64,000 bases of DNA from Hygrophila difformis (lineage: Eukaryota > Streptophyta > Magnoliopsida > Lamiales > Acanthaceae), in assembly GCA_030278955.1 (NCBI GenBank), contig JAOANR010000012.1:21755977-21819976 (forward strand), written 5' to 3'. The position numbers were made by a program, and so were the translations under genes. The notes under the pieces are model-generated. The model was given only the letters and a program-made list of their open reading frames with translations, did no database searches and was not told the origin of the DNA. Of this stretch, positions 25,489-56,481 are shown one piece after another; the stretch's first letter is position 1; every line of letters starts with the position of its first letter.

Positions 25489-25497
25489 TTATATAAT
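25489..25497. repeat. 9-bp target-site duplication TTATATAAT (left)
   Basis: TTATATAAT directly precedes the GGGAAAAT terminus at 25498 and is repeated exactly at 36468-36476 after the mirrored terminus. Nine bp is the characteristic Mutator-like duplication length. The local AT-richness raises the chance-match probability, but both copies abut the inverted termini exactly. Confidence 0.85.
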
Positions 25498-25651
25498 GGG
25501 AAAATACCTAAAAAATACCTAATTCCAAAAGAACTTACCACTTTAATACCCCAAACAATTTTTCTTCCTCTAAACCCCCCAACCAAAAACAAAAATTCAT
25601 ATAAGGTACATGGAGAGATAAAATTTTAAAATAAAGACCATTTTACCCTTA
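25498..25651 (+). repeat. Left terminal inverted repeat of pararetrovirus unit 1
   Basis: Begins GGGAAAATACC. Compared with the reverse complement of the right end, the first eight bases are identical. The AAATACCT, TTACC-CTT, GGAGAGA and GAC--TTTT-CCCTTA blocks then recur in the same order, giving roughly 70% match over the first 55 bp and patchy similarity to ~150 bp. An imperfect TIR of this length and composition is typical of plant MULEs. Confidence 0.78.
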
Positions 25652-25746
25652 AAACATAAAATCAAAGAAATAATATCTAAAAATTACCTAAAAGAGTTTA
25701 ACACTTCTCTAAAAAGTGCCCAAAAAACACACCCCCTCTAAAAAAT

Positions 25747-25758
25747 TGGTATCAAAGC
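25747..25758 (+). promoter_or_regulatory. tRNA-Met primer binding site, pararetrovirus copy 1
   Basis: TGGTATCAAAGC matches the tRNA-iMet-complementary primer site at 11 of 12 positions; copy 2 has the perfect form TGGTATCAGAGC. Caulimovirids prime minus-strand synthesis here. It lies 22 bp upstream of ORF1, the usual end of the pregenomic leader. Confidence 0.85.
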
Positions 25759-25780
25759 ATAAGTTGCGATTTTAGGGCTT

Positions 25781-26035
25781 ATGGCTAATGACGGATTAAA
25801 AGATAATCAAAACACAATTAAATTAAATGACAATATTAATTACGAAAAATTTTTAATAATTGATATTGAAAAGAAAAGGCTATTCAAAAACCAAACTAAA
25901 GATTGTAAGATCTGTAAACAAAATAAAATAAAAATCAAAAGAATAAAACTCAAGAAAAATAGAACTTTTAAAAATTATTGCAAACTAATCGTAAGATTAG
26001 AAGCTTTAAGACAACACTTAAAAACTCATGAATAA
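25781..26035 (+). CDS. Pararetrovirus ORF1, small basic protein (84 aa)
   Basis: The first frame after the primer site, ATG at 25781, stop TAA at 26033-26035. The product is lysine- and asparagine-rich with a CKIC pair near residues 42-45 and a very basic run (KIKIKRIKLKK), suggesting nucleic-acid binding. Its stop overlaps the ORF2 start by 8 nt (ATG 26028), an arrangement used for coupled translation in caulimovirids. It remains open and 84 aa long in copy 2 (52557-52811). I do not recognise a named family. The position matches the small first ORF of badnaviruses and tungroviruses, but sequence homology is not shown. Confidence 0.7.
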   Translation: MANDGLKDNQNTIKLNDNINYEKFLIIDIEKKRLFKNQTKDCKICKQNKIKIKRIKLKKNRTFKNYCKLIVRLEALRQHLKTHE

Positions 26036-26429
26036 AATGTTAACAAATAAAAACATGGATATACAAAGAAGTCTTCAATCAATTGAAGCAAAACTAGATA
26101 AGTTAGAATTATTAGGAAAACAAAATAATACAAATCTTAAAGTAATATTAGAAAACCAAACATACTTATCAACCCAGTATGATAAATCATCCAGTGGAAT
26201 GAAAAACTTATCTAAAACCATAACAACACTTCAATATGAAAATTCTAAACTAGTTAATGATATCCCAAATTCGAGAAAAATCATTAACCATAGTGAGGAA
26301 TTAAAACAACTACAAGATAAGGTTGAAAAACTTGATAAAGAGATAAAGGAAATTAAAAATATTGTTGAAAACAATATTGAAAATGTAAATGAAATGTGTA
26401 ACAAAATTATAAAAATCATTAAAGGATAA
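26028..26429 (+). CDS. Pararetrovirus ORF2, coiled-coil protein (133 aa)
   Basis: ATG at 26028, stop TAA 26427-26429, whose last base is the first base of the ORF3 ATG. Nearly all helical with heptad hydrophobics (LQSIEAKLDKLELL; ELKQLQDKVEKLDKEIKEI), predicting a long coiled coil. Small coiled-coil proteins between the leader and the main frames are common in Caulimoviridae, for instance virion-associated proteins that tetramerise and bind capsids. That function is inferred. In copy 2 a GAA-to-TAA change removes the last 12 residues. Confidence 0.7.
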   Translation: MNKMLTNKNMDIQRSLQSIEAKLDKLELLGKQNNTNLKVILENQTYLSTQYDKSSSGMKNLSKTITTLQYENSKLVNDIPNSRKIINHSEELKQLQDKVEKLDKEIKEIKNIVENNIENVNEMCNKIIKIIKG

Positions 26430-26908
26430 TGGAAACAGCTTTGAAAGAGGTTAAAGAAACAATAGAAAACTTTAAACAAGAAATTAATAATAAATTCAAA
26501 GAATTAAACAAAGAATTAGTAGAAATAAAGCTAAATGTTAATAATCTTCATAAGAAGATTGGCGAAATAACAGACCATAATAAAACAAATAATACAAATA
26601 TTAGTCTAATTGACAAGAAAATAAAAGAGCTTGTAACAACTGAAATACTAAAGAAAAAAATTGATGATGTGCATGTTCAAATGGAAAACATGAAAAAATA
26701 TCAAGACCCTGCATTAAGAATAGCCATTGAAAGCATAGATGAAAAACTTGAAAGAATACAAGCTGTTAGAATACCTGAAGATAATACAATAAAACAACTA
26801 GCTGAACAAATTGCAAAGTTACCTGCAGAAGCTAGAAGGAAAACTAAACCACAAGAAAAACTAAACTTCTGGGTTGTAAAACCAGACGAAAAATATTTAC
26901 AAAAATGA
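26429..26908 (+). CDS. Pararetrovirus ORF3, coiled-coil virion-associated-like protein (159 aa)
   Basis: ATG at 26429 within TAATG; stop TGA 26906-26908 overlaps the ORF4 ATG (ATGA). Residues ~1-70 and 80-125 are strongly helical with heptads (FKELNKELVEIKLNVNNLHK). The C-terminus is basic and proline-containing (KLPAEARRKTKPQEK), as in virion-associated proteins whose basic tail binds nucleic acid. The assignment is by architecture only. In copy 2 a GAA-to-TAA stop falls in the middle and the 3' end is lost to an 892-bp deletion. Confidence 0.68.
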   Translation: METALKEVKETIENFKQEINNKFKELNKELVEIKLNVNNLHKKIGEITDHNKTNNTNISLIDKKIKELVTTEILKKKIDDVHVQMENMKKYQDPALRIAIESIDEKLERIQAVRIPEDNTIKQLAEQIAKLPAEARRKTKPQEKLNFWVVKPDEKYLQK

Positions 26909-27870
26909 GCAGAAGATCGTTTTCTCTTACTAATGAATCCAAAAACAGTCTAGTAGAAAGAAGTAATTCTCAAAGGATTGAAAGCTCAAACTTTGAAAAA
27001 ACCTTAATAGATAGAATGTTCAGAGAAAAAACCAAACTTGAAGAAGGGCCAACAATAATTGAGGAAATAATTGACCCTGATATTGAATTTGAAAACTTCA
27101 AGAAAAGAACATTAATCCAATTGGAACCAAGATTATTGTATGACCAAAGATTCCTTAATTGGAACACAGGATATTACAAATATCATTATACGGAACCAAT
27201 AAGCTGTCTAAAAGATGACAAAAAATTAATAAAATTAATAAGCAATAATGAAGCAATTAGGCTTCAAAGACAAGGACAAAAATACATGCATATGGGATTA
27301 ATCTCCATAGGAGTAAAAGGTTTAACTAGAAAAAACTTAGGAACTAAAGTCCTAATGACTGTTCTAGATACAAGGTGGACTAATCCAACCCAAGCTATCA
27401 TAGGATTAATGGAAATTGATATGAACCCTAATGTGGGAGTATGTTATTTGGCACCAGATTATATGATACAAATAACAGATTTTATGAAGCATATCCAAAT
27501 AGGAATTCAAACTGTAGGATATGAAGAAATGGAAACTGGTCACAACCTAATGGTATGTGTAGGCTTCTTAGGAAGAATCACAAACAATGGTCAAACCAGG
27601 CATAAAACAAAAATTGAAACTGTGGTAAGTATCATAGGAAGTGAAGGAGTAAAAATGATAGGACCAACTGAAATATCATCGGAAGAAAATGCTGGGAAAA
27701 ATTGGGATCTATCAAAATTCTTTGAAAAACCAAATGTTAAAAATTTAACTCCAAAAAATGTAAATTACTTCATTAACTCCAGAGGAGAAACGTCAGTAAG
27801 ATTTAATGATTATGAAACTGCAAAACGACCAATAGATTTTACAGAAGAAGAAGGTCAGGAAGATGAATAG
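26905..27870 (+). CDS. Pararetrovirus ORF4, movement protein (30K superfamily, 321 aa)
   Basis: ATG at 26905 (ATGA overlap with ORF3), stop TAG 27868-27870 overlapping the ORF5 ATG at 27863. The central part has the beta-rich pattern of 30K movement proteins: a G-rich strand (HMGLISIGVKGLTRKNLG), then VLDTRW with the candidate conserved Asp at 155, then short strands (AIIGLMEIDM; NLMVCVGFLGRI). Length and position after the small ORFs fit. The product would bind plasmodesmata and move the virus between cells. Here the movement protein is a stand-alone frame, unlike badnaviruses, tungroviruses and petuviruses, where it is fused to the polyprotein. Copy 2 lacks almost all of it. Confidence 0.78.
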   Translation: MSRRSFSLTNESKNSLVERSNSQRIESSNFEKTLIDRMFREKTKLEEGPTIIEEIIDPDIEFENFKKRTLIQLEPRLLYDQRFLNWNTGYYKYHYTEPISCLKDDKKLIKLISNNEAIRLQRQGQKYMHMGLISIGVKGLTRKNLGTKVLMTVLDTRWTNPTQAIIGLMEIDMNPNVGVCYLAPDYMIQITDFMKHIQIGIQTVGYEEMETGHNLMVCVGFLGRITNNGQTRHKTKIETVVSIIGSEGVKMIGPTEISSEENAGKNWDLSKFFEKPNVKNLTPKNVNYFINSRGETSVRFNDYETAKRPIDFTEEEGQEDE

Positions 27871-30800
27871 ACAAATGGAAAGATTTATTGTAGAAAAACC
27901 AGTAACGGATAACTATGTAAAATATGAAGGAAAACAAATATTCCACCCTAGTGAAGATGAAGTGGAAAGAATTGCTAAAGACATTCAACATATTTGTTTA
28001 AAAACAAGAAAATTTGAAAACTTTAAGAAAGGAAAAATTCTAAATAAAAGAGAGTATCATGACAGGTATGAAAGAGTTTTCTCACAACATGTGCATTCTG
28101 CCTTGACTAAAAAATTCAAAAACAAAGGAATATTACCTCACAATTGTCAAGATTGTAAAATTGATCTTGATAGAAGATATTCTGATAAGTTAAAACATAT
28201 GATCCACTTAGTAGAATGTCCAAAACATAGTGGATATTTTGAGAATTGGATAGAAAATTATGAAGAAATGATAAGAGAAATATCAAAACTAAATGAACAA
28301 AAACAAGAATTAAAGGATAAAATGAAAAGAAAAAATAAAGAATGGAAAAATAATTTAGAAGATATTATTGAGAAAGAAGTACAGAAAAGATTACAAAAAA
28401 TACAAATAAAAGAAGAACAACAAGCAGATATAGAAGCTCATTTGTTCTTAAAGGAAAACTCACCAGAAGTAGGACAAAGTTCTGATAATATATTAATGGA
28501 ACAATATATGGGAGACCATATCTCCTTACATTCTGAGAAAACAAATAAAACAGCTAAGGAATTCATGAACAAAGATGTTGTCATGAAAAATACAGGAGAC
28601 AGTATAACAAGAGTCCCTGGAACTCCCTTTGCCCCATACCAAAGAGGTACTGAGTGGAGACCTGGAACTAATTATACTGGAAACAATTCTAGACACTCAA
28701 TCACACATGTTCATCCAGAATATCCTTATGGAAAAATACAACCTGGGATGATAACAAAACCTAGAGGAATTAGGCAACCTTTAGAAAGAGGATATTATCA
28801 TAACCCAGCAATATTAGAAGTAACAAATGTGAGCCCTCAAGAATGGGGCTCAGTAATTGCAAAATGGAAAAACATAGTTGTGGCTGATTACATCAAAAAC
28901 AAAAATGATTATAATGATACAGCTGAATCAATGTATGGATATCTTGAAACCTATTTAGGAGAATTCGCACAGTCAATGTGGGAAGTATTTAAAAGAGACT
29001 ATCCAATGGATTATCAAGACTTAATAGAAAGAGGACCAAATCCTTATAACTTTGTAAATAAAATATCAAGTCTAATAACGGGTGAAGATGGTAATTCAGG
29101 ACATATAACAACACAAATGGATGCCTTGATCCATCTAGACCAAATGCACCTAGATGACTTATATGGAACAGTAGACTTCTTGAATGAATATGTCTACTAT
29201 ACAGGCCTAGCAGGAGGTGCTTTTAACCAAGAGTTAGGTGAAAAATTATTTATGAAAATACCAAGACCAATCGGTCAAGAAATTCAAGATACATGGAATA
29301 AAATGGTTGAAAAGAATCCTCAACAATACACTATTAGTATGAGGGCTGTTCATGTGGTAAAAATACTAAAAGATAAGTGTACAAATATAATTGCACAAAA
29401 ACAACTTAAGAAAACTGATTATTCATTCTGTAAAAGGATATACACTCCTCAACGATATGGTAGGCCGGAACCATTAAGGAAAAAACCCAAATTCATAACA
29501 AGAAAGAAGTATTTTATAAAACAATCAAATAGCAGAAAACCTTTCTTGAAACAAAAACATCACGTCAGAAAATATAATCCTAGTAGAAATTATACAAAGA
29601 AACTTGCTTGTTTCACATGTGGTGATGAAAGCCATTTGGCAACAGCATGTCCTAAAAGAAAAAACCAACATTCAAGAGAAGCAATTCTTACAGAATGTAT
29701 ACAACAAGATATATTGGATGTAGACTCAGATGTTTCTGAGACTGAAACAATATATAGCATAGTAACAGTAGAAGAAAATGTTATAGAAGAACAAGGGGAT
29801 GATGATCCCTATGAATTGATTAATATGCTTGCAAATGAAAACTCATATAATGGTATCACATATAAAGAGTATATGATGCCATATGAAACTGAGTATATGA
29901 TGAGAGAAATTAATGAATGCGAAAACCATAATTGGCTTTTCAGGGTAGGCACTGATTCTACACCTTGTATAAAATGCTCTTATTACCCATCAAGAAAACT
30001 TAGAGCTAAATGTACAATATGTCATGTGGAAATATGCCAAATATGCTTGTTAAAATATTATAAAATTAAATTCCCCGAAGAAATGCCAATAACAAAAATT
30101 GATGATAATTATACATTCATCACAAAAAGAATAGATATAATAGAAAGAAAACTTTTTGATTTACAAGATATAATGAATCCTAAGGAATTAAAAACCAGAA
30201 TTGAAAACATAGAAGAAATCTTAGAAGATTATAATATGTTAAGTCCTAAAAATACGGAAAATAAAGGAAAAGAAGTTCCTGAAGAAGAATCTAATGATAA
30301 ACAAAATCCTAGTACGGAGTACATGTTAGCACAAAACCCTGAGTACATACCTGTGTGCCACGATCCTTCATCATTAACTACACTAAGGGTACCAATAATC
30401 TTTAAATTAAGGGAATTGGTATTCCGTACTAATGCAATAATCGATACAGGATGTACAAGAATAATAATAAATGAGAAACTTATCCCAGAACATCTACAGA
30501 AAAACTTAGCAAAACCCATTAAATCAGAATTAATGGATGGAAGAATATCATATACAACAAAACAACCTATTTCAGGTGGACAAATATTCTTTGAAACCAA
30601 TTGTGGAATATCAGAACCCTATGGAGTTCCTGATAATTCATATATAAAAGACTTAGTAATAAATGCAGATGTAATCTTAGGATTACAATTCTTCTTACAA
30701 AATAATGGAGGATTATTTATTACAAAAGATTATATCCAAATTGTTGAAAAAGCAACTTTGGCAATGTTTGCACCTAGTATCAGTAATGCGGAAACCAAGC

Positions 30801-32590
30801 TTTTAACAACATCAGAGTTGCGAGAGAAGCGTGGTGGAGCCCCTACTAATACAAAAACAAAAAATAAAAAACTTTTAAAAGACAAGGATATTGAAAATTG
30901 TAAATGCAAAATAAAAGGAGCATGTAAACAAACTTGTAAAGAAAACATACAAATTACAGAGTTTGAAGAAAAATACATTCCTGAAACCCCAAAACTGAAA
31001 GAATTAATAAGTATAACTAGATTTAAGCCTGAAGAAACCATAACAAAATGGATTGAGAGGTTAGAAAAATCCCAAATTATTGGAGATAACATCCAGAAAT
31101 ATTGGGAAAAAGATGGAACAATATGTAAGCTTGAAATAATAAATCCAGAATTAAGAATCTCAACTGCAGAAATTAATCCTACAAATCTGGATATAGCAGA
31201 TTTCAAAATGCATATTGATGAATTAAAAACTTTAAAAGTAATTAGAGAATCAAACTCCAGACATAGGTCTGCAGCTTTTATTGTGAGAAAACATTCTGAA
31301 ATTGTAAGAGGAAAATCAAGAATGGTCATTAATTATAAAAGACTCAATGACAATACAAAAGATTTTGCTTACAACATACCAGATAAAACAGTCTTAATAA
31401 ATAGGATTCAAGACTCAAAAGTATATAGCAAATTTGACTGTAAGTCGGGATTCTGGCAAGTAAAAATGCATCCTGAATCAGTTGAATGGACTGCATTCAC
31501 ATGTCCAGAAGGTTTATTTGAATGGTTAGTAATGCCATTTGGACTAAAAAATGCACCAGCTATATTTCAACAAAAAATGGATAAAATTTTCAAACCATAC
31601 CAAAAATTTGTTTTGGTATACATTGATGATATTCTAGTATTTTCAAAAAATAGTACTGAACATATGAGTCATCTTGATACAGTGTTTAGGCTATTTGAAA
31701 AACATGGAATAATCATCTCAAAGAAAAAGATGGAAATTAATAAAACTAAAATAGCATTCCTTGGGGCAGAAATTGGAAAAGGAAAAATAAAACTCCAAGA
31801 TCATATTGCTAAAAAGGCTATTGAATTTCCTGATAAAATGGAAGATACAAAACTATTACAACAATTTTTAGGATTGGTTAATTATGCTAGACCATACATT
31901 AAAAACTTATCCTCATTAACAGGATCATTATATAATAAACTGGGAAAAAATGGTCAAAGGTATTTTAACCAAGAAGATATAAAAAATGTACAAAAAATTA
32001 AAGAAGCATTAAAAACACTTCCAGAATTGGTATTGCCAGAAGATAGTGATTATCTTATTGTGCAAACTGATGGATCACATGAAGGATGGGGAGCTATCCT
32101 TTTGCGAAAAAAGGATGTCTACTCACCTAAAAGTAAAGAAGAAATTTGCCAATATGCATCAGGAAAATACAGAGAAAAGGGTAACCTTTCCTCGATTGAT
32201 GCAGAACTATTAGCAATAAAGTACGCACTTGATAAATTTGAACTGTTTTTAACAGGAAAACCAGGATTCACAGTAAGAACTGATTGTGAAGCCATAGTAA
32301 AATTTCATAGCCAACTCCAAGAAAAAAGATCAATGTCTAGGAGAAGGTGGTTGAATTTTACAGATGTTATTAGTCAGAAAGGCTACAAAATAAAATTTGA
32401 ACATATTAAAGGAGAAGATAACAAAATTGCTGATATACTATCTAGAATTCTGATTAAAGAAAGGGAAAAACCATTATATGACACTGAATTTAAAAACGAA
32501 TCAATTGATAATTATGATGAAAATGATGAGGAAAAATTTAAACTAAAATGGGATCAATTTTACAGGGAGGATTGGAATATTGAGAATTGA
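27863..32590 (+). CDS. Pararetrovirus ORF5, coat protein-protease-RT-RNase H polyprotein (1575 aa)
   Basis: ATG at 27863, stop 32588-32590. Order: charged N-terminus with a coiled coil (~134-193); coat-protein core (~310-560); CCHC knuckle C583/C586/H591/C596; a second Cys cluster C702/C705/C717/C720/C725/C728, spaced CX2CX11CX2CX4CX2C; pepsin-like protease D861-T-G; RT with YIDD at 1253-1256; RNase H with D1403 in TDGSHEGWG and a following SIDAELLAIKYAL helix. No integrase follows, which separates it from Ty3/gypsy and fits Caulimoviridae. The second Cys cluster is otherwise known from badnaviruses and tungroviruses. The open frame has no stop or frameshift. In copy 2 the same frame is broken at several points. 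The polyprotein would be cut by its own protease into capsid and polymerase. Confidence 0.92.
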   Translation: MNRQMERFIVEKPVTDNYVKYEGKQIFHPSEDEVERIAKDIQHICLKTRKFENFKKGKILNKREYHDRYERVFSQHVHSALTKKFKNKGILPHNCQDCKIDLDRRYSDKLKHMIHLVECPKHSGYFENWIENYEEMIREISKLNEQKQELKDKMKRKNKEWKNNLEDIIEKEVQKRLQKIQIKEEQQADIEAHLFLKENSPEVGQSSDNILMEQYMGDHISLHSEKTNKTAKEFMNKDVVMKNTGDSITRVPGTPFAPYQRGTEWRPGTNYTGNNSRHSITHVHPEYPYGKIQPGMITKPRGIRQPLERGYYHNPAILEVTNVSPQEWGSVIAKWKNIVVADYIKNKNDYNDTAESMYGYLETYLGEFAQSMWEVFKRDYPMDYQDLIERGPNPYNFVNKISSLITGEDGNSGHITTQMDALIHLDQMHLDDLYGTVDFLNEYVYYTGLAGGAFNQELGEKLFMKIPRPIGQEIQDTWNKMVEKNPQQYTISMRAVHVVKILKDKCTNIIAQKQLKKTDYSFCKRIYTPQRYGRPEPLRKKPKFITRKKYFIKQSNSRKPFLKQKHHVRKYNPSRNYTKKLACFTCGDESHLATACPKRKNQHSREAILTECIQQDILDVDSDVSETETIYSIVTVEENVIEEQGDDDPYELINMLANENSYNGITYKEYMMPYETEYMMREINECENHNWLFRVGTDSTPCIKCSYYPSRKLRAKCTICHVEICQICLLKYYKIKFPEEMPITKIDDNYTFITKRIDIIERKLFDLQDIMNPKELKTRIENIEEILEDYNMLSPKNTENKGKEVPEEESNDKQNPSTEYMLAQNPEYIPVCHDPSSLTTLRVPIIFKLRELVFRTNAIIDTGCTRIIINEKLIPEHLQKNLAKPIKSELMDGRISYTTKQPISGGQIFFETNCGISEPYGVPDNSYIKDLVINADVILGLQFFLQNNGGLFITKDYIQIVEKATLAMFAPSISNAETKLLTTSELREKRGGAPTNTKTKNKKLLKDKDIENCKCKIKGACKQTCKENIQITEFEEKYIPETPKLKELISITRFKPEETITKWIERLEKSQIIGDNIQKYWEKDGTICKLEIINPELRISTAEINPTNLDIADFKMHIDELKTLKVIRESNSRHRSAAFIVRKHSEIVRGKSRMVINYKRLNDNTKDFAYNIPDKTVLINRIQDSKVYSKFDCKSGFWQVKMHPESVEWTAFTCPEGLFEWLVMPFGLKNAPAIFQQKMDKIFKPYQKFVLVYIDDILVFSKNSTEHMSHLDTVFRLFEKHGIIISKKKMEINKTKIAFLGAEIGKGKIKLQDHIAKKAIEFPDKMEDTKLLQQFLGLVNYARPYIKNLSSLTGSLYNKLGKNGQRYFNQEDIKNVQKIKEALKTLPELVLPEDSDYLIVQTDGSHEGWGAILLRKKDVYSPKSKEEICQYASGKYREKGNLSSIDAELLAIKYALDKFELFLTGKPGFTVRTDCEAIVKFHSQLQEKRSMSRRRWLNFTDVISQKGYKIKFEHIKGEDNKIADILSRILIKEREKPLYDTEFKNESIDNYDENDEEKFKLKWDQFYREDWNIEN

Positions 32591-32607
32591 ATAATATTGT
32601 TACAGGA

Positions 32608-34053
32608 ATGGCAGAAAACTCCCAGAAAAACTCTTTGAAAATCAGCAATGAAAATGGAGTAAAAACCACAGGGATGGTGAAAACCCCAGAGGGATATTAC
32701 ACAATCCCTTCTAAAACCAGCATCCCAGAAGGGAAGAAAAAAGATAAACTCCCAGAAAAAGGAGTAAAAATCTGCTTTGGCAAAAGAGCAGAAACAGGCA
32801 ATAATGTAGAATTAATCTTATTTGATAACATGAAGTACAGGCCTATCACAGGGTTGAACTACACAGAGGAACAGATCTGCCTTTGTGATAACATCTGGAG
32901 AGCATCATTTGACAAAAACAACAGCAGGTATATTGTTACTTGTCTCTCTGCTTTAAGCATGTATTTCCAGAAATTCAATAACACAAAACCATTTTTATAT
33001 TATGTAATCTATGAAGGTTATAAAAAAGGAATTTATGATAAAAATGATATTTTACCTCTTAATGAAGATAATGAAAAACCTCTTCATAAAGGATTTTATG
33101 ACATAATGTCTGCAATTCAATTTGCAAAAACCACAATGGGCCCAGATTTCTTTGTAAGCCCAAGTTTGAAAAACATTGTTGATGGTTTGAGGCCAAAAAC
33201 CCAAAATCCTACAGGCCCAGTCCAATATTCAATTGGACATTCTTCTAAAACCCACATTGTGTTTTGTGACCATTGTGAAAAAATGGCCAAGGAAGTCTGT
33301 AAATATGAAGCCCAAAAGGCCGAATGGTTACAGAATTTTGAAAACCAAAAAATGAAAACCCTTGAAGCAGAGGCCCAGATTGAAACCCTCACCAAGAAAC
33401 TTGAAATCCTTCAAAACCAAAATGAGAAGTTGGCCTCAAAAATTGTGTCCCTTACACTAAAAACACCAAAGCCAGAAGAAAAACCAGTCTATGGTCCAGA
33501 ACCCAAACCCACCAGTTCTATGACTGCAGTAGAATTGGCAAAAGCCTGGATGCAGCAAAACCAGGAAAATTCAACTCCTGAGATCTTTAAGGATCAAAAG
33601 TTTGAATCTAGTCCGTCTCAAACGGCAGACGGTAAAGACGAATCAAGTCCGTTGATAGCTGATGCTTTGCTAAAAAGCATAAGTTCAGATAATTTTGAAC
33701 CAAACCAGGGAAGTTCTAACCCTGAGGTCTTTGAGGACCAAAATGTTGAACTAAGCCCATCTAGTCCGGTAGATGGTAAAAGCACATCAATTCCGGTTAT
33801 GGCTGGTAGTTTGCCAAAAACTATGAGTCCAGTACAGACTGGAAAATTTGAGAACCTCAGTGAAGAAGAAATTCTTCATAAGCTTGAAATTGAATTAAAG
33901 CCTACTTTTGCTGAAGCAATGGCAACCAGAAAAAATGGAAGGTTTAGTGCACTGGTAGCACTAAAGAAAAATGAAGCAAAATTCCAGGCCAATAAAATCA
34001 TAAAAAATCAGAAAAAAGAAAGTGGCGGACCCCACAATGATGAAGAGTACTAA
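32608..34053 (+). CDS. Pararetrovirus ORF6, translation transactivator-like protein (481 aa)
   Basis: I choose ATG 32608, 17 nt after the ORF5 stop; the frame is open upstream only to a TTG at 32587. The product has an N-terminal basic lead, a conserved block at residues ~45-185 including YVIYEGYKKGIY (132-143), which resembles the RNase H-like fold segment of caulimovirid inclusion-body/transactivator proteins. A leucine heptad coiled coil (~225-285) and a Ser/Pro/Asp-rich C-terminal half follow. Such proteins allow reinitiation on the polycistronic RNA, which fits the overlapping ORFs upstream. A location right after RNase H and before the promoter is the usual place for this gene. Copy 2 carries a frameshift and a stop. 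Confidence 0.65.
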   Translation: MAENSQKNSLKISNENGVKTTGMVKTPEGYYTIPSKTSIPEGKKKDKLPEKGVKICFGKRAETGNNVELILFDNMKYRPITGLNYTEEQICLCDNIWRASFDKNNSRYIVTCLSALSMYFQKFNNTKPFLYYVIYEGYKKGIYDKNDILPLNEDNEKPLHKGFYDIMSAIQFAKTTMGPDFFVSPSLKNIVDGLRPKTQNPTGPVQYSIGHSSKTHIVFCDHCEKMAKEVCKYEAQKAEWLQNFENQKMKTLEAEAQIETLTKKLEILQNQNEKLASKIVSLTLKTPKPEEKPVYGPEPKPTSSMTAVELAKAWMQQNQENSTPEIFKDQKFESSPSQTADGKDESSPLIADALLKSISSDNFEPNQGSSNPEVFEDQNVELSPSSPVDGKSTSIPVMAGSLPKTMSPVQTGKFENLSEEEILHKLEIELKPTFAEAMATRKNGRFSALVALKKNEAKFQANKIIKNQKKESGGPHNDEEY

Positions 34054-34392
34054 GGGAGCCACGCAGAAATGAGCTGGAATTCACAATAAATACCAGCATG
34101 TGAAGGAAGGAATCCTGAAAAGAAAAAAGTCAAGAAGAAAACAAAATGCTAGTGGAGCCAAAAAGCACCACTAACCATGTGAAAGAAGGAATCCGAGGCG
34201 GATAAAACCAAAAGGCAGACAAGAGCCATGTGACTCTTGGAAAACCACGTTAATGGGCACTAGGCCCCTCATTATTATATTGTTGCATTATTGTACTAGT
34301 TGTTTGATTTTTCATCCGAACCTTATCGGATAGCTTTGCCACTTGGCACGTTTTTATTGGTTGTTGTGGATTACTTAGATGACATTCCCATC
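34054..34392 (+). promoter_or_regulatory. Intergenic region upstream of pregenomic promoter
   Basis: A 339-bp non-coding stretch between the ORF6 stop and the TATA box. It has short direct repeats ('TGTGAAGGAAGGAATCC' near 34100 and 'TGTGAAAGAAGGAATCCG' near 34178). This is the expected enhancer position for a caulimovirid pregenomic promoter. No specific factor site is claimed. Confidence 0.5.
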
Positions 34393-34400
34393 TATAAATA
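34393..34400 (+). promoter_or_regulatory. Pregenomic RNA promoter TATA box, copy 1
   Basis: TATAAATA in the context CATCTATAAATAGAGGGATG, followed by a pyrimidine- and CA-rich start region (ACACACACCCACTTC) about 30 bp on. Copy 2 retains the same box at 45352-45359 (minus strand). The layout resembles the 35S-type promoter of Caulimoviridae. Confidence 0.75.
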
Positions 34401-34534
34401 GAGGGATGGTCTTCACTTGTAACACACACCCACTTCTTAGCTCTTTAGCTCTCTAAGGTTTTTGAGACTGCATTCTTGCTACTCTCGAAAGCTCTTTCTC
34501 TCTCTAATTCTCTTGTATTCCCAACCCTTTCAGT

Positions 34535-34540
34535 AATAAA
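34535..34540 (+). terminator. Poly(A) signal AATAAA, copy 1
   Basis: AATAAA about 140 bp downstream of the TATA box, so just after the predicted transcript start. In caulimovirids this position is bypassed on the first pass and used on the second, giving terminally redundant pregenomic RNA. In this linear copy it would end transcripts that run through ORFs 1-6. Confidence 0.65.
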
Positions 34541-34643
34541 ATTTCAGTTTGTAAAGAAAGACCCGGTGTGGATTGCTTCCTCTTTTCTTTACTTTCTGAA
34601 ATACAGGGGCCCGTCTGAACGGGAAAGCCTCTCCTCTCTCAAG

Positions 34644-34914
34644 GTATGGGTTAGTTTATGATTTATGTTGTGGTATGATTGTTCTATGTATGGATGATAA
34701 TGTTATAAACATAAATATGTGACCTTTTAAAACTTAATTGATGAGATATGCCATTAGGGGAGTAAGATAAAAATTTAAAAGGCTTTATGCCATAAAAGCT
34801 GTAAGAAAGACTCGTTAGGGGAACCACAATTCAGGGATGTTTGTTAAACATAATGGTGTTTTGTTACTGTTGTCCCTTTTGATTTGCCCCTTAGACCCCC
34901 TGCTTACATTTCAG
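34644..34914 (+). other. Candidate leader intron, copy 1
   Basis: CTCAAG|GTATGG at 34643/34644 is a good plant donor. A pyrimidine-containing TGCTTACATTTCAG|ATC at 34914 is a good acceptor. The 271-bp interval is AT/T-rich, has no long ORF and keeps both sites in copy 2 (44840-45106). Splicing of caulimovirid leader RNA is established for some genera; splicing here is inferred. Confidence 0.45.
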
Positions 34915-35200
34915 ATCTAGGTCTGGATAATGCTAATTTGAATTTGAAACCCGAAACAGGCCCAGAAAAATATCTCATCAGTGACAGTAATAAGAGGATT
35001 GCGGACTTAATGTTTATGATAATATTTCCATAACAAAGGACAATCGGACCCATAACACATAATCAGAAATTTAACACGACCAAGAGAACAATAGGAGATG
35101 GCAAGTACCTAGTAAGACATCACGACATATAAGTTTTTCGCGTGCAAAAAATCAGTGTTTTAAAACCTTTTGAAATAATTAATATCTTTTTTCAAAACAA

Positions 35201-35608
35201 ATGGAGAATATGATTAAAACTGCTGAAAACCCTAAAACAGAATCTTTTAAAAACACAGAAACAAGGTTTGTTATTGTACCTTACCCGAAAACACACTTTC
35301 TATGCCAAGAATGTGAAATTTGGCTTATTAGACTGATGAATAAGCGAAATCAAATAGACATGATTTGCAGAAAACAAAGATTGTTTGAAAATATTATAAA
35401 ATGGAAAGTGACTAAGGAGACTGAATTTCTAAAAAATGAAATAGAAATTCTAGAAAACAGTTATCAAAAGCATACTAAAATCTATAATGTTTTTGAAAAA
35501 TTACAGGATGACCATATAAAAAGATGTGAAAACTATTTTATAGCATGTGAATATGAAGAAAAAATGTGGAAAAAATTACAAGAAGAACGTTTAGCAAGAA
35601 ATAACTGA
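35201..35608 (+). CDS. Pararetrovirus ORF7, CxxC helical protein (135 aa)
   Basis: ATG 35201, stop TGA 35606-35608. It lies downstream of the pregenomic promoter and therefore in the RNA leader, which is unusual. Near residue 36 it has LCQECEIWL, a zinc-ribbon-like CxxC pair, with a further Cys about 20 residues on (MICRKQ), then charged helices. ORF8 begins with a similar ICPECGKLG, so the two may be diverged duplicates. It stays open in copy 2 for most of its length, until an 87-bp deletion joins it out of frame to ORF8. No family recognised. Confidence 0.65.
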   Translation: MENMIKTAENPKTESFKNTETRFVIVPYPKTHFLCQECEIWLIRLMNKRNQIDMICRKQRLFENIIKWKVTKETEFLKNEIEILENSYQKHTKIYNVFEKLQDDHIKRCENYFIACEYEEKMWKKLQEERLARNN

Positions 35609-35615
35609 TTTAAAA

Positions 35616-35930
35616 ATGGAAGTACAAGTGCCTTTTGATATTTGTCCTGAATGTGGAAAACTTGGAGAAACCATGTGGAAAATAGAAAAAGAAATAAAAG
35701 ACCTTAAAGAAACAATTATAAGGTTAACAGAATATAAAGAAAACGAAGAAGAAGAAGCACATGAACTCATATATGTGTTAAACCGTGACGAAGAAATAAA
35801 AACTATTTTAAATTCGGTTCATATATATGAAGAAGTTATAAGTTACCAATCAACAGACCTCAAAACAAAAATAGAAGAGTTAAACACTTCTAAAACAGAA
35901 TTCATTAATCATATCAGAAATCAACATTAA
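35616..35930 (+). CDS. Pararetrovirus ORF8, CxxC coiled-coil protein (104 aa)
   Basis: ATG 35616, seven nt after the ORF7 stop; stop 35928-35930, two nt before the ORF9 ATG. The N-terminal FDICPECGKLG holds a CxxC pair. The remainder is helical with heptads (MWKIEKEIKDLKETIIRL). Spacing to its neighbours suggests coupled reinitiation. In copy 2 the start and the first Cys are deleted. No family recognised; the CxxC and helix layout parallels ORF7. Confidence 0.65.
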   Translation: MEVQVPFDICPECGKLGETMWKIEKEIKDLKETIIRLTEYKENEEEEAHELIYVLNRDEEIKTILNSVHIYEEVISYQSTDLKTKIEELNTSKTEFINHIRNQH

Positions 35931-35932
35931 AG

Positions 35933-36187
35933 ATGACTTATAAAACAATAAGAGACTACAGTAAATGGGAGAAAACTGCGATTGAAAGATATCGCATTAA
36001 AAAAGAAATTGTAAAAATCCAAATCGAAGCAAAAATAAAATGCTTGCAGATCTTAAACAGAAAAAATCTCATAATGGAAGAATTAGATTTAAGTTTTTGG
36101 ATAAATGATGAAATCAACAACCTACAGGCATATGAAAAGGGATTAGATCGGGAAAGAAAACAGTGGCAGGTTAATTATACCGGTTAA
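35933..36187 (+). CDS. Pararetrovirus ORF9, small helical protein (84 aa)
   Basis: ATG 35933, stop TAA 36185-36187. A basic, fully helical protein with Trp residues (YSKWEKTAIERYRIKKE; LDLSFWINDE). Copy 2 preserves the complete 84-aa frame at 43637-43891 with only a few substitutions, although the neighbouring frames are damaged. It is the last frame before the right inverted repeat. Not recognised. Confidence 0.65.
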   Translation: MTYKTIRDYSKWEKTAIERYRIKKEIVKIQIEAKIKCLQILNRKNLIMEELDLSFWINDEINNLQAYEKGLDRERKQWQVNYTG

Positions 36188-36332
36188 TCACAATTAAAAT
36201 CCCTAATAAAAAATTTTTTAAACTGTTAAAAAAACCCAAATATCCAGAAAAAGTATTGAAACCCAATATAAAAAGTACTGAAATTATATGCAAAATGTAC
36301 AAAACTGATAAGGAAAACGTACTAGACTTAAG

Positions 36333-36467
36333 TAAGGGCAAAACTGTCAAAATATTAATCTCTCTCCTACGAAAAAAGTGTTGGGTACTGAAAAGGGATA
36401 AAAAACCCCTATGGGTACTGAAGAGGTAATAAGGATGGGAAGGGAGGTATTTATTTCGAATTTTCCC
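36333..36467 (-). repeat. Right terminal inverted repeat of pararetrovirus unit 1
   Basis: The reverse complement begins GGGAAAATTCGAAATAAATA and runs through TACCTC, CAGTACCC, GGAGAGAGA and TTTTGCCCTTA blocks matching the left end in order. Copy 2 has the same terminus at 43410-43543. The outermost bases abut the 9-bp duplication. Confidence 0.78.
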
Positions 36468-36476
36468 TTATATAAT
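36468..36476. repeat. 9-bp target-site duplication TTATATAAT (right)
   Basis: Exact match to 25489-25497, directly outside the ATTTTCCC terminus. Confidence 0.85.
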
Positions 36477-43409: not shown

Positions 43410-43543
43410 GGGGAAATTCGAAATAAATACCTCCCACCCATTCTTATTACCTGTTAAGTACCCATGGTGTTTTGTTATTCCTTTTCAGTACCTAACACTT
43501 TTTTCATAAGAGAGAGATTAATGTTTTGACAGTTTTGCCCTTG
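43410..43543 (+). repeat. Terminal inverted repeat, copy 2 (ORF9 side)
   Basis: Matches the right TIR of copy 1 from the first base inward, with ATAAATACCTCCC, CAGTACC, AGAGAGA and TTTTGCCCTT blocks. The flank TATGTTTAT (43401-43409) is the candidate half of a target duplication; its partner is not seen. Confidence 0.75.
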
Positions 43544-43636
43544 CTTAAGTTTAGTACATTTATCTTATAAGTTTTGTACATTTTGTATGTGATTTCAGTA
43601 CTTTTTATACTGGGTTTAAATACTTTTCCTTTTTTT

Positions 43637-43891
43637 TTAACCGGTATAATTAACCTGCCACTGTTTTCTTTCCCGATCTATTCCCTTTTCATATGCCTGT
43701 AGGTTGTTGATTTCATCATTTATCCAAAAACTTAAATCTAATTCTTCTATTATGAGATTTTTTCTGTTTAAGAGTTGTAAGCATTTTATTTTTGCTTCGA
43801 TTTGGATTTTTACAATTTCTTTTTTAATGCGATATCTTTCAATCGCAGTTTTCTCCCATTTACTGTAGTCTCTTATTGTTTTATAAGTCAT
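43637..43891 (-). CDS. Pararetrovirus ORF9, copy 2 (84 aa, intact)
   Basis: Full-length homologue of ORF9 in copy 1, with start, stop and length kept and only three substitutions visible (for example L for I near residue 40). Its preservation next to damaged frames may be chance because the frame is short. No family recognised. Confidence 0.55.
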   Translation of the reverse strand: MTYKTIRDYSKWEKTAIERYRIKKEIVKIQIEAKIKCLQLLNRKNLIIEELDLSFWINDEINNLQAYEKGIDRERKQWQVNYTG

Positions 43892-43893
43892 CT

Positions 43894-44190
43894 TTAATGT
43901 TGATTTCTGATATGATTAATGAATTCTGTTTTAGAAGTGTTTAACTCCTCTATTTTTGTTTTGAGGTCTGTTGATTGGTAACTTATAACTTCTTCATATA
44001 TATGAACCGAATTTAAAATAGTTTTTATTTCTTCGTCACGGTTTAACACATATATGAGTTCATGTGCTTCTTCTTCTTCGTCTTCTTTAGATTCTGTTAA
44101 CCTTATAATTGTTTCTTTAAGGTCTTTTATTTCTTTTTCTATTTTCCACATGGTTTCTCCAAGTTTTCCACATTTTTTCTTCAAATTCAC
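43894..44190 (-). pseudogene. Pararetrovirus ORF8 remnant, copy 2
   Basis: Retains the C-terminal ~95 residues of ORF8 (KCGKLGETMWKIEKEIKDL onward). An 87-bp deletion between two copies of AATGTGGAAAA removed its ATG and first Cys. The apparent Met start is in unrelated upstream sequence. Confidence 0.7.
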
Positions 44191-44551
44191 ATGCTATAAA
44201 ATAGTTTTCACATCTTTCTATATGGTTATCCCGTAATTTCTCAAAAACATTATAGATTTTAGTATGCTTTTGATAATTGTATTCTAGAATTTCTATTTCA
44301 TTTTTTAGAAATTCAACCTCCTTAGTCACTTTCCATTTTATAATATTTTCAAACAATCTTTGTTTTCTGCAAATCATGTCTATTTGATTTCGCTTATTCA
44401 TTAGTCTAATAAGCCAAATTTCACATTCTTGGCATAGAAAGTGTGTTTTCGGGTAAGGTACAATAACAAACCTTGTTTCTGTGTTTTTAAAAGATTCTGT
44501 TTTAAACAAATCTGTTTTAGGGGTTTCAGCAGTTTTAGTCATATTCTCCAT
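44117..44551 (-). pseudogene. Pararetrovirus ORF7, copy 2 (3' end altered)
   Basis: Matches ORF7 of copy 1 from the Met through the CxxC region, with a small in-frame insertion near residue 13. After KMW the 87-bp deletion places the frame out of register inside ORF8, giving an unrelated C-terminus ending near 44117. Confidence 0.7.
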
Positions 44552-44839
44552 TTGTTTTGATAAAAGATATTAGTTATTTCAAAAAAAAGTTTTAAAAACA
44601 CTGGTTTTTGTGCGCAAAAACTTATATGTCGTGATGTCTTACTAGGTACTTGCCATCTCCTATTATTCTCTTGGTCATGTTAAATTTCTGATTATGTATT
44701 ATGGGTCCGATTGTCTTTTGTTATGGAAATATTATTATAAACATTAAGTCCGCAATCCTTTTATTACTGTCACTGATGAGATATTTTTCTGGGCCTGTTT
44801 CGTGTTTCAAATTCAAATTAGCATTATTCAGACCTAGAT

Positions 44840-45106
44840 CTGAAATGTAAGCAGGGGGTCTAAGGGGCAAATCAAAAGGGACAACAGTAACAAAAACATC
44901 ATTATGTTTAACAAACATCCCTGAATTGTGGTTCCCCTAACGAGTCTTTCTTACAGCTTTTATGGCATAAAGCCTTTTAAATTTTTATCTTACTAATGGC
45001 ATATCTCATGAATTAAGTTTTAAAAGGTTACATGTTTATATTTATAACATTATCATCCATACATAGAACAATCATACCATAACATGAATCATAAACTAAT
45101 CCATAC
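44840..45106 (-). other. Candidate leader intron, copy 2
   Basis: The donor CAAG|GTATGG and acceptor TTACATTTCAG|ATC match the copy 1 sites. Interval 267 bp. Conservation of both sites in two diverged copies is the main support. Confidence 0.42.
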
Positions 45107-45209
45107 CTTGAGAGAGGAGAGGCTTTCCCGTTCAGACGGGCCCCTGTATTTCAGAAAGTAAAGAAAAGAGGAAGCAATCCACACCGGTTCTTTCTTTACA
45201 AACTGAAAT

Positions 45210-45215
45210 TTTATT
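45210..45215 (-). terminator. Poly(A) signal, copy 2
   Basis: AATAAA on the minus strand, ~140 bp after the TATA box, as in copy 1. Confidence 0.6.
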
Positions 45216-45351
45216 ACTGAAAAGGGTAGGGATACAAGAAAACTAGAAAGAGAAAGGGCTTTCGAGAGTAGCAAGAATGCAGTCTCAAAAACCTTAGAGA
45301 GCTAGAGAGCTAAGAAGTGAGTGTGTGTTTTACAAGTGAAGACCATCCCTC

Positions 45352-45359
45352 TATTTATA
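45352..45359 (-). promoter_or_regulatory. Pregenomic promoter TATA box, copy 2
   Basis: TATAAATA on the minus strand in the same CCCATCTATAAATAGAGGG context as copy 1, followed by a CA-rich start region. Confidence 0.7.
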
Positions 45360-45700
45360 GATGGGAATGTCATCTAAGTAATCCACCACTACCAATAAAA
45401 ACGTGCCAAGTGGCAAAGTTATCCGATAAGATTCGGATGAAAAATCAAACAACTAATAATTCAACAATATAATAATAATGTAGTAAAGAGGGGCCTAGTG
45501 CCCATTAACGCGGTTTTCCAAGAGTCACATGGCTCTTGTCGGATTTTTGACTTTTCCTGCCTTGGATTCCTTTCTTCACATGGTTGGTGGTGTTTTGAGC
45601 CGCCCTACTAACTCTTTTTTGTTTTCTTTTTCTTTTTCAGATTCCATTATTTTTGAATGCTGGACTTTAATGTGAATTCCAGCTCATTCCTGTGTGGTTC

Positions 45701-47134
45701 TCTCAATATTCTTTATCATGGGGGGGACCACCACTTTGTTTTTTCTGGTTTTTTATAATTTTATGGCCTGGTATTTTGCTTCATTTTTCCTTAGTGCTAC
45801 CATTGCACCATATCTTCCATTTTTCGTGGCTGCCATTGCTTCAGCAAAGGTAGGCTTTAGTTCCATTTCAAGCTTATGAAGAATTTCTTCTTCACTGAGG
45901 TTTTCAAATTTTCCAGTCTGTACTGGACTCATAGTTTTTGGCAAACTACCAGCCATAACCGGAATTAATGTGCTTTTACCATCTACCGGGCTAGATGGGC
46001 TTAGTTCATCATTTTGGTCCTTAAAGACCTCAGGGTTAGAACTTCCCTGGTTTGGTTCAAAATCATCTGAACTTATGCTTTTTAGCAAAGCATCAGCTAT
46101 CAACGGACTTGACTCGTCTTTCCCGTCTGCCGTTTGAGACGGACTAGATTCAAACTTTTGATCTTTAAAGACCTCAGGAGTTGAATTTTCCTGGTTTTGC
46201 TGCATCCAGGCTTTTGCCAATTCTACTGCAGTCATAGAACTGGTGGGTTTGGGTTCTGGACCATAGACTGGTTTTTCTTCTGGCTTTGGTGTTTTCAGTG
46301 TAAGGGACACGATTTTTTAGGTCAATTTCTCGTTTTGGCTTTGAAGGATTTCAAGTTTTTTGGTGAGGTTCTCAATCTGGGCCTCTGCTTCAAGGGTTTT
46401 CATTTTTTGGTTTTCAAAATTCTGTAACCATTCGGCCTTTTGGGCTTCATATTTACAGACTTCTTTGGTCATTTTTTCACGATGGTCACAAAACACAATG
46501 TGGGTTTTAGAAGAATGTCCAATTGAATATTGGACTGGGCCCGTAGGATTTTGGGTTTTTGGCCTCAAACCGTCAACAATGTTTTTCAAACTTGGGCTTA
46601 TAAAGAAATCTGGGCCCATTGTGGTTTTTGAAAATTGAATTGCAGACATTATGTCATAAAATCCTTTATGAAGAGGTTTTTCATTATCTTCATTAAGAGG
46701 TAAAATATCATTTTTATCATAAATTCCTTTTTTATAACCTTCAAAGATTACATAATATAAAAATGGTTTTATATTATTGAATTTCTGGAAATACATGCTT
46801 AAAGCAGAGAGACAAGTAACAATATACCTGCTGTTGTTTTTGTCAAATGACGCTCTCCAGATGTTATCACAAAGGCAGATCTGTTCCTCTGTGTAGTTCA
46901 ACCCTGTGATAGGTCTGTACTTCATGTTGTCAAATAAAATTAATTCTACATTATTACCAGTTTCTGCTCTTCTGCCAAAGCAGATTTTCACTCCTTTTTC
47001 TGGGAGTTTATCTTTTTTCTTTCCCTCTGGGAGGCTGGTTTTAGAAGGAATTGTGTAATATCCCTCTGGGGTTTTACCATCCCTGTGGTTTTTACTCTGT
47101 TTTCATTGCTGGTTTTCAGAGAGTTTTCTGCCAT
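45701..47134 (-). pseudogene. Transactivator-like ORF6, copy 2 (broken)
   Basis: Homologous to ORF6 of copy 1 from the ATG at 47134. A one-base deletion near 47078 (after 'GMV') shifts the frame early. A TCA-to-TAA change at ~46318-46320 ends the conserved half, and the extreme C-terminus is frameshifted near 45753. Two long open pieces remain (46317-46991 and 45753-46310). Confidence 0.85.
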
Positions 47135-47151
47135 TCCAGTAACAGTATTAT

Positions 47152-51621: not shown

Positions 51622-51823
51622 TTTCCTGACCTTCTTCTTCTGTAAAATCTATTGGTCTTTTTGCAGTTTCATAATCATTAAATCTTACTGACGTTTCTCC
51701 TCTGGAGTTTATGAAGTAATTTACATTTTTTGGAGTTAAGTTTTTAACATTTGGTTTTTCAAAGAATTTTGATAGATCCCAATTTTTCCCAGCATTTTCT
51801 TCTGATAATATTTCAGTTGGTCC
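51614..51823 (-). pseudogene. Movement protein ORF4 remnant, copy 2
   Basis: Only the last ~70 residues (GPTEILSEENAGKN to the end) remain. The rest, including the central Asp region, was removed by an 892-bp deletion whose junction carries a 3-bp microhomology (TAG). Confidence 0.85.
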
Positions 51824-52163
51824 TAACAGCTTGTATTCTTTCAAGTTTTTCATCTATGCTTTCAATGGCTATTCTTAAAGCAGGGTCTTGATATTTTTTC
51901 ATGTTTTCCATTTGGACATGTACATCATCAATTTTTTTCTTTAATATTTAAGTTGTTACAAGCTCTTTTATTTTCTTATCAATTAGGCTAATATTTGTAT
52001 TATTTGTTTTATTATGATCTGTTATTTCGCCAATCTTCTTATGAGGATTATTAACATTTAGTTTTACTTCTATTAATTCTTTGTTTAATTCTTTAAATTT
52101 ATTATTAATTTCTTGTTTAAAGTTTTCTATTGTTTCTTTAACCTCTTTCAAGGCTGTTTCCAT
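51824..52163 (-). pseudogene. ORF3 remnant, copy 2
   Basis: Starts at ATG 52163 in the same TAATG overlap. A GAA-to-TAA stop falls after 'KELVTT', and the last ~45 residues are missing because of the same 892-bp deletion. Confidence 0.8.
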
Positions 52164-52198
52164 TATCCTTTAATGATTTTTATGATTTTATTACACAT

Positions 52199-52564
52199 TT
52201 AATTTACATTCTCAATATTGTTTTCAACAATGTTTTTAATTTCCTTTATTTCTTTATCAAGTTTTTCAACCTTATCTTGTAGTTGTTTTAATTCTTCACT
52301 ATGGTTAATGATTTTCCTTGGATTTGGGACATCATTAACTAGTTTAGAACTTTCATATTGAAGTGTTGTTATGGTTTTAGATAAGTTTTTCATTCCACTA
52401 GATGATTTATCATATTGGGTTGATAAGTACGTTTGGTTTTCTAATATAACTTTAAGATTTGTATTATTTTGTTTTTCTAATAATTCTAACTTATCCAGTT
52501 TTGCTTCAATTGATTGAAGACTTCTTTGTATATCCATGTTTTTATTTGTTAATATTTTATTCAT
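52199..52564 (-). pseudogene. ORF2, copy 2 (truncated C-terminus)
   Basis: A coiled-coil frame of 121 residues compared with 133 in copy 1. A GAA-to-TAA change after 'ENVN' removes the last 12. The rest is nearly identical. Confidence 0.75.
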
Positions 52565-52811: not shown

Positions 52812-52833
52812 AAGCCCTAAAATCGCAACTTAT

Positions 52834-52845
52834 GCTCTGATACCA
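52834..52845 (-). promoter_or_regulatory. tRNA-Met primer binding site, copy 2 (perfect)
   Basis: TGGTATCAGAGC on the minus strand, a full match to the tRNA-iMet-complementary primer site used by plant retroelements. Copy 1 differs by one G-to-A. Confidence 0.88.
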
Positions 52846-56471: not shown

Positions 56472-56481
56472 AAGAATACAG

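What the first reader, a model, noticed from the sequence alone, without database searches (positions are those of the whole stretch)
25489..36476. A complete pararetrovirus genome enclosed by Mutator-like inverted repeats and a perfect 9-bp target duplication
Seen: GGGAAAAT at 25498 and its inverse ATTTTCCC ending at 36467, with ordered inverted similarity for ~135-154 bp and TTATATAAT on both outer sides. Between them lie the primer site, movement protein, coat/protease/RT/RNase H, a transactivator-like frame and a promoter. Known: Caulimoviridae have no integrase and integrate with irregular ends; Mutator-like elements make ~9-bp duplications and can carry captured sequence. Inference: the virus became cargo of a non-autonomous MULE and moves as a DNA transposon. 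I know of no described case of a whole pararetrovirus carried this way.
Basis: partly seen in the sequence, partly recalled or inferred. Interest (0 to 1): 0.93.

Follow-up and report, generated by a model that had tools for sequence, protein, structure and literature searches.

The report
Plant virus genome with transposon ends
A plant genome carries many copies of a complete reverse-transcribing virus that, unlike its known relatives, sits in the chromosomes with exact transposon-type ends and a 9-base target duplication, while its genes changed as if they were still needed for copying.

Summary
The window element (25498-36467) has imperfect inverted ends and a perfect 9-bp target duplication. 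The host assembly (915 Mb) holds a dispersed family with the same two ends. Of 47 further copies whose two flanks I could compare, 40 have a perfect 9-bp duplication and 44 at most one mismatch; mispaired flanks of 35 of them give 0 of 1190 perfect. The 20 exact 5' ends found by pattern all lead into the virus. An exact-pattern search found no end-to-end junction. This differs from the usual picture of endogenous caulimovirids.

'Virus as cargo of a MULE' is only half right. Between copies the viral genes changed under strong purifying selection: 23 of 23 shared RT-core variants are synonymous, and pol dN/dS between the two window copies is 0.05. The primer site is exact in 30 of 31 sequences, and copies are mosaics of the same haplotypes. 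The best reading is that the element multiplies by reverse transcription, as a virus or retroelement, and enters chromosomes through MULE-type ends, using a transposase in trans.

Not shown: which transposase acts, the inferred circle with abutted ends, and whether it ever leaves the cell. An end-free probe of the genome did not complete.

The parts
25489..25497 (.). 9-bp target site duplication, left copy TTATATAAT
25498..25640 (+). 5' terminal inverted repeat (GGGAAAATACCT...), best matched over its outer 24-60 bp
   Evidence: same start in further copies
25747..25758 (+). Primer binding site (initiator Met-tRNA type, recalled), one base off in this copy; TGGTATCAGAGC in 30 of 31 aligned sequences
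25781..26035 (+). ORF1, 84 aa, no Pfam match
26028..26429 (+). ORFa, no Pfam match
26429..26908 (+). ORFb, no Pfam match
26905..27870 (+). Movement protein (PF01107, E 8e-10)
27863..32590 (+). Open polyprotein: coat domain, A3B protease, reverse transcriptase, RNase H
32608..34053 (+). ORF in transactivator position; no Pfam match; 2 database relatives, 64-66% identical
34393..34399 (+). TATA box (TATAAAT) of the likely pregenomic promoter, read by eye
34535..34540 (+). AATAAA, likely poly(A) signal about 140 bp after the TATA box, read by eye
35201..35608 (+). ORFx, no Pfam match
35616..35930 (+). ORFy, 104 aa; no Pfam match over cut-off (one sub-threshold hit to an ORC3 insertion domain, E 0.006)
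35933..36187 (+). ORFz, 84 aa, no Pfam match; a second haplotype only about 75% identical exists in other copies
36310..36467 (+). 3' terminal inverted repeat (...GGTATTTATTTCGAATTTTCCC)
36468..36476 (.). 9-bp target site duplication, right copy TTATATAAT
43410..53036 (-). Second copy in the window: same 3' end, 5' end short by about 56 bp, internal deletions, no clear duplication

Best explanation
This is a family of pararetroviruses (Caulimoviridae-like) whose genome carries Mutator-type terminal inverted repeats in its non-coding region. Shown: the whole unit inserts at exact ends with 9-bp target duplications at AT-rich sites across the genome, and the viral genes evolved under purifying selection between insertions and recombined. 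Inferred: it multiplies by transcription and reverse transcription of a circle in which the two ends abut (promoter and poly(A) signal lie inside the element, so one linear copy cannot give the full pregenomic RNA in the usual way), and a MULE-type transposase supplied in trans, of which the host has many, cuts at the ends and inserts the unit. In effect the virus has a transposon's integration step in place of an integrase.
For: Ends and duplications: of 35 further copies with both ends, 31 perfect (all 31 different) and 33 with at most 1 mismatch, against 0 and 10 of 1190 mispaired controls; L026/L076 perfect across an 18.9-kb span; of 11 testable 3'-anchored copies, 8 perfect and 10 with at most 1 mismatch. 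Target sites: the 31 perfect duplications are 94% AT, 100-bp flanks 74%. Selection: RT core in 18 sequences, shared variants 23 S and 0 N against about 16 non-synonymous expected, P 1.5e-12; single variants 8 S/4 N, P 0.004; no stop in any of 18. 5' genes in 25 close copies, shared 13 S/6 N (P 7e-5), single 20 S/19 N/2 stops (P 0.001). c1 against c2 dN/dS: pol 0.05, gag 0.09, TAV position 0.19, end of MP 0.29, ORFa 0.08, ORFb part 0.06. Primer site exact in 30 of 31. Recombination: pol and 3' haplotypes reassort, 3061 of 3322 site pairs incompatible, against 46 of 484 within pol and 82 of 22801 within 3'. No exact abutted junction. MULE transposase domains: 150 of 150 scored (of 2395 candidates) over the Pfam cut-off.
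Against: No transposase-bearing element with these ends was found; one MULE copy examined over 2.5 kb upstream showed no match (inconclusive). The abutted circle is not seen in any sequence; the junction pattern gave 0 hits, as it also would if no such circle existed. ORFx dN/dS between c1 and c2 is about 1 on few sites; ORFx-z show at most weak constraint over all copies; ORF1 alone shows none (4 N, 3 S shared). In the RT subset closest to c1 the numbers are small (shared 4 S/0 N, P 0.02; single 1/1). 7 of 29 further copies carry a frameshift or stop in the 5' ORFs. The second window copy lacks the 5' end. The inverted repeat is only moderately alike beyond its outer 60 bp. Gene conversion between chromosomal copies could also give mosaics. 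The 5' and 3' probes favour copies with intact ends, and the end-free probe did not complete.
Confidence: 0.7

Rival explanations
1. Passive cargo: a complete virus was trapped inside a non-autonomous MULE and the composite spread only by DNA transposition with transposase in trans.
For: Exact ends and 9-bp duplications; many MULE transposase domains in the genome; 7 of 29 further copies are broken in the 5' ORFs and yet inserted somewhere (breakage may be later).
Against: Shared RT variants 23 of 23 synonymous; low dN/dS between c1 and c2; primer site kept in 30 of 31; strong mosaicism. Inert cargo should drift.
Confidence: 0.1
2. Same replication by reverse transcription, but the enzyme that makes the 9-bp duplications is not of MULE origin: either another transposase superfamily, or an unassigned protein of the element itself.
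For: Seven ORFs have no Pfam assignment over cut-off; no MULE with the same ends found (both limited).
Against: A 9-bp AT-rich duplication with GGG... ends is the typical MULE signature (recalled); six of these ORFs are only 84-159 aa, short for a DDE transposase.
Confidence: 0.15
3. Ordinary caulimovirid integration: viral DNA broken at a hairpin in the intergenic region and joined into AT repeats by end joining, the duplications being microhomology.
For: TA-rich insertion sites are usual for endogenous florendoviruses (PMC4241990, passages).
Against: 40 of 47 perfect 9-bp duplications with exact ends; 0 of 1190 in mispaired controls; no exact abutted junction.
Confidence: 0.02

Closest known systems
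Caulimoviridae (endogenous caulimovirids / florendoviruses)
   Same: Movement protein, coat domain, A3B protease, RT, RNase H, Met-tRNA-type primer site, no integrase found; RT 65% identical over 81% of the query to the top database hit, and 69% over 43% to a rice-annotated one.
   Different: Exact inverted ends and 9-bp duplications; published endogenous copies are described with short gains or losses at TA repeats, tandem arrays and speculative integration routes (PMC4241990 passages; PMC10377300 section 3.1). Unit of 10.97 kb against 7.1-9.8 kb stated for the family (PMC10741241 section).
Mutator-like elements, including Pack-MULEs
   Same: GGG... inverted ends, 9-bp duplications, AT-rich targets, foreign sequence inside (MULE traits recalled).
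   Different: No transposase inside; the inside is a whole reverse-transcribing virus under selection, not a gene fragment.
Teratorn (herpesvirus fused with a piggyBac-type DNA transposon, medaka)
   Same: A viral genome that enters chromosomes through DNA-transposon ends (PMC10175614 passages).
   Different: Teratorn is a 180-kb DNA virus with its own transposase; this is a reverse-transcribing virus with none found.
LTR retrotransposons (Metaviridae)
   Same: RT-based copying (inferred here) and exact insertion.
   Different: No LTRs and no integrase; 9-bp rather than the usual 4-6-bp duplication (recalled).

Membership tests
Caulimoviridae | MP, coat, aspartic protease, RT and RNase H in order | tested here: met
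Caulimoviridae | Met-tRNA primer site | tested here: met
   (consensus recalled)
Caulimoviridae | No integrase domain | tested here: met
   No integrase family in the Pfam scans of the nine ORFs
Caulimoviridae | Genome 7.1-9.8 kb | tested here: not met
   10.97 kb between the ends; range from PMC10741241. A size range, not a strict criterion
Caulimoviridae | Encapsidated circular dsDNA | not testable with these tools
   no virion or episome data
Mutator-like element | 9-bp target duplication | tested here: met
Mutator-like element | Terminal inverted repeats | tested here: met
   Outer 30-60 bp clear, inner part weak
Mutator-like element | MULE transposase inside, or ends shared with an autonomous MULE | tested here: inconclusive
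   None inside; a degenerate end pattern without mismatches found only this element's two ends; one MULE copy partly examined
Pack-MULE (passive capture) | Captured sequence is carried passively and drifts | tested here: not met
   Purifying selection on viral genes
LTR retrotransposon | Long terminal direct repeats | tested here: not met
   Window self-comparison (E up to 1e-10) shows no direct repeat joining the two ends

The most novel reading that the evidence does not exclude
A class I/class II hybrid: a reverse-transcribing plant virus has made DNA-transposon ends part of its replicating genome, so that the circle with abutted ends is both the template for its RNA and the substrate for a host MULE transposase. 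This gives a caulimovirid a true proviral stage, inherited through the germ line, and possibly a return route by excision.
Probability: 0.55. Interest if true: 0.97.

Novelty: categorically new. Interest (0 to 1): 0.92.

Why it matters
How caulimovirids enter plant chromosomes is described as speculative (PMC10377300, section 3.1 read), and how endogenous pararetroviruses integrate and propagate as unknown (PMC10175614, passage). Here is a family in which the entry step has a clear signature and can be tested with ends alone. It also joins the two great classes of mobile DNA: copying by reverse transcription (inferred), insertion by DNA-transposon ends. Nine searches of the held library showed no report of it in the titles and abstract openings listed; two searches listed only 20 of 142 and 15 of 1,693 papers, and subscription journals and preprints are not in that library.

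Tried and rejected
Rejected: chance inverted repeat; microhomology at AT repeats (control); passive cargo as the main mode; segmental duplication as the source of the copies counted (31 of 31 perfect duplications differ). L030 and L031 do share a flank and were not in the duplication counts.

Led nowhere: three viral-contig scans (no relatives; two pattern hits, L001 and L002, not followed up); host name by a gypsy gag search (one hit, 48% over 55%); TAV-position search (two unnamed relatives); RT tree (places the element in a set of six with support 84/84 only).

Corrected: the piece 26022-26768 was read in one frame although ORFb has another; its 0.19 is withdrawn and replaced by ORFa 0.08 and ORFb part 0.06.

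Rows left out: 4 of 39 copies (L025, L026, L030, L031) had no 3' end in the fetched stretch (L026 was later paired with L076); L139 and L145 showed no 5' end in the fetched stretch; L137's flank reads N. L138 was classed by the script as lacking the 5' end because the stretch stops 26 bases into it; its 9-mer lies directly before it, so I count it as perfect. L024/L053 counts as a mismatch, although a perfect TTAAATTAT lies 6 bp further out. No mispaired control was run for the 12 copies outside the 35.

Limits: only the best 40 of 371 (5') and 40 of 202 (3') candidates were scored, and those probes favour intact ends. An internal RT probe of the genome was asked for repeatedly, last, and never answered.
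Full report
Check of the observation. The element begins with GGGAAAAT at 25498 and ends with ATTTTCCC at 36467, and TTATATAAT flanks it on both sides. The ends match at 19 of 24 outer positions. Random segment pairs of the AT-rich part of the window reach the end-to-end score of the outer 30 bp in 1 of 4994 cases and of the outer 60 bp in 6 of 4979 (local scores: 2 of 4994 and 23 of 4979), while 100 and 160 bp are reached by 95 of 4969 and 87 of 4949. So the terminal repeat is real but strong only at the outside. The chance that two flank 9-mers agree is about 0.1% (105 of 84681).

Gene content. Pfam gives movement protein, caulimovirus coat domain, A3B peptidase, RT and RNase H. The polyprotein frame is open over 1584 codons. 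The transactivator-position frame and the six small ORFs have no Pfam match over cut-off; the former has two database relatives, 64-66% identical. By eye, a TATA box lies at 34393 and AATAAA at 34535, the spacing expected of a caulimovirid promoter and its terminal redundancy (recalled). The primer site is at 25747. Three small ORFs follow the poly(A) signal. If the ends are joined in a circle, the leader from the TATA box to the primer site would be about 2.3 kb and would contain these ORFs and the joined ends; that circle is inferred.

A second copy in the window. The minus-strand copy c2 (53036 to 43410) ends at the same 3' base in unrelated flanking DNA. It lacks about 56 bp at its 5' end, has internal deletions and shows no clear duplication.

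Genome-wide. A 271-base 5' probe gave 40 scored matches of 371 candidates, one of them the window's own. In all 29 further loci that came with their DNA, virus sequence follows the end. Taking the 3' stretches of the 39 further copies and the ten missing 5' flanks, 35 have both ends: 31 have perfect 9-bp duplications, all different, and 33 have at most one mismatch. Mispairing the flanks gives 0 perfect and 10 with one mismatch or less, of 1190. L026/L076 adds one perfect case across an 18.9-kb span. To lessen the bias of the 5' probe I took the 14 of 40 places of the 3' probe that the 5' probe had not listed: 12 of 14 have the 5' end within about 140 bp of the expected place. Of 11 testable, 8 are perfect and 10 have at most one mismatch; one flank reads N. 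Together 40 of 47 are perfect and 44 of 47 have at most one mismatch, the window copy not counted. One copy (L024/L053), counted as a mismatch, has a perfect 9-mer 6 bp outside its 5' end. The 31 perfect duplications are 94% AT, 100-bp flanks 74%.

Ends elsewhere. A degenerate end pattern, no mismatch allowed, found 76 places, 20 of the 5' type and 56 of the 3' type, and no other sequence; the reversed control gave 0. The 20 exact 5'-type places are all in the list and lead into the virus (19 fetched; one is the window's). Not all 56 of the 3' type were followed inwards. An abutted junction with a 0-14-base gap, exact match only, gave 0.

How it multiplies. Between c1 and c2, dN/dS is 0.05 for pol, 0.09 for gag, 0.19 for the TAV position and 0.29 for the end of MP; ORFx is about 1 on few sites. 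ORFa is 0.08 and the compared part of ORFb 0.06. In the RT core of 18 sequences (c1, c2 and 16 fetched of the 39 copies), shared variants are 23 synonymous and 0 non-synonymous, with about 16 non-synonymous expected (P 1.5e-12); single variants are 8 and 4 (P 0.004); no sequence has a stop. In the subset nearest c1 the numbers are small: shared 4 and 0, P 0.02; single 1 and 1. In the 5' ORFs of 25 close copies, shared variants are 13 S and 6 N, single ones 20 S, 19 N and 2 stops, both short of neutral expectation; ORF1 alone shows no constraint (3 S, 4 N shared), and the first 351 bp of the movement protein show 5 S and 0 N shared. Of the 29 further copies, 7 carry a frameshift or stop in these ORFs. 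ORFx-z show at most weak constraint. The 12-base primer site is exact in 30 of 31 aligned sequences, c1 being the exception.

Mosaics. Copies alike at about 99% in the 5' part fall into two RT haplotypes (about 96.7% and 99.7% to c1) and two 3' haplotypes (ORFz about 75% or 97-100%), in different combinations. Across 15 copies, 3061 of 3322 pol-by-3' site pairs fail the four-gamete test, 105 of 352 for 5'-by-pol and 343 of 2416 for 5'-by-3', against 46 of 484 within pol, 82 of 22801 within the 3' part and 16 of 256 within the 5' part. Template switching during reverse transcription explains this best; gene conversion is possible.

Mechanism. The exact ends and 9-bp duplications are shown. That the insertions come from a pool multiplying with working viral proteins follows from the selection data. 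That the pool consists of circles with abutted ends, and that a MULE transposase in trans does the insertion, is inferred. The genome has many MULE transposase domains (150 of 150 scored, of 2395 candidates, are over the Pfam cut-off). One such copy, read for 2.5 kb upstream of its domain, shows no matching end, and its other side could not be fetched. MULE and IS256 transposases are related, and IS256 makes circles with abutted ends (recalled), which makes the model plausible, no more.

Age. In the close group there are 41 single variants over 25 copies of 1473 coding bases, about 0.1% per copy. At a plant rate near 1e-8 per site per year (recalled) the latest burst is of the order of 0.1 million years; viral mutation before insertion would make it younger.

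Place among relatives. The RT tree puts the element in a set of six with support 84/84, with unnamed sequences and one from Cornus florida, outside the rice/Lolium group and outside the Dioscorea virus/badnavirus group. The host was not identified.

Literature. Seen: section 3.1 of PMC10377300 in full, passages and part of its reference list; passages of PMC4241990 and PMC10175614; one section and passages of PMC10741241. The parts seen describe no inverted ends and target duplications for an endogenous caulimovirid; in PMC4241990 the terms 'inverted repeat' and 'target site' do not occur. [quoted passage not shown] the reference it gives is on human retrotransposons. Other papers were seen only as search listings.

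Noticed in passing
L024 and L053 (C11:39234007-39244967): A perfect 9-mer TTAAATTAT flanks the copy, but 6 extra bases stand between it and the 5' GGG end; these may come from a spacer in the joined-end form.
   Followed up: partly
window:35933-36187 and L034, L041, L042, L044, L045, L048, L050, L051, L056: ORFz occurs in two haplotypes only about 75% identical, swapped between elements otherwise near-identical in the 5' part, as if this small gene changes fast or is exchanged.
   Followed up: partly
window:32-11447 and 53702-63934: Two young LTR elements with 2.75-kb LTRs 99.8% and 99.5% identical flank the region; their frames look like Ty3/gypsy (recalled).
   Followed up: no
window:53090-53260: A Stowaway-like MITE end (CTCCCTCCGTCCC) lies beside the truncated 5' end of the second copy (name recalled).
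   Followed up: no
G000: Dozens of MULE transposase domains with the same score in 353-aa frames, with a FAR1-like N-terminus (recalled) in the one read: perhaps a recently active MULE family in the host.
   Followed up: partly
C9:1912532 and C9:1913369: Two 3' ends of the element point at each other 836 bp apart: two insertions close together.
   Followed up: no
L001, L002: A 17-base piece of the 3' end occurs in two IMG/VR contigs, probably by chance.
   Followed up: no
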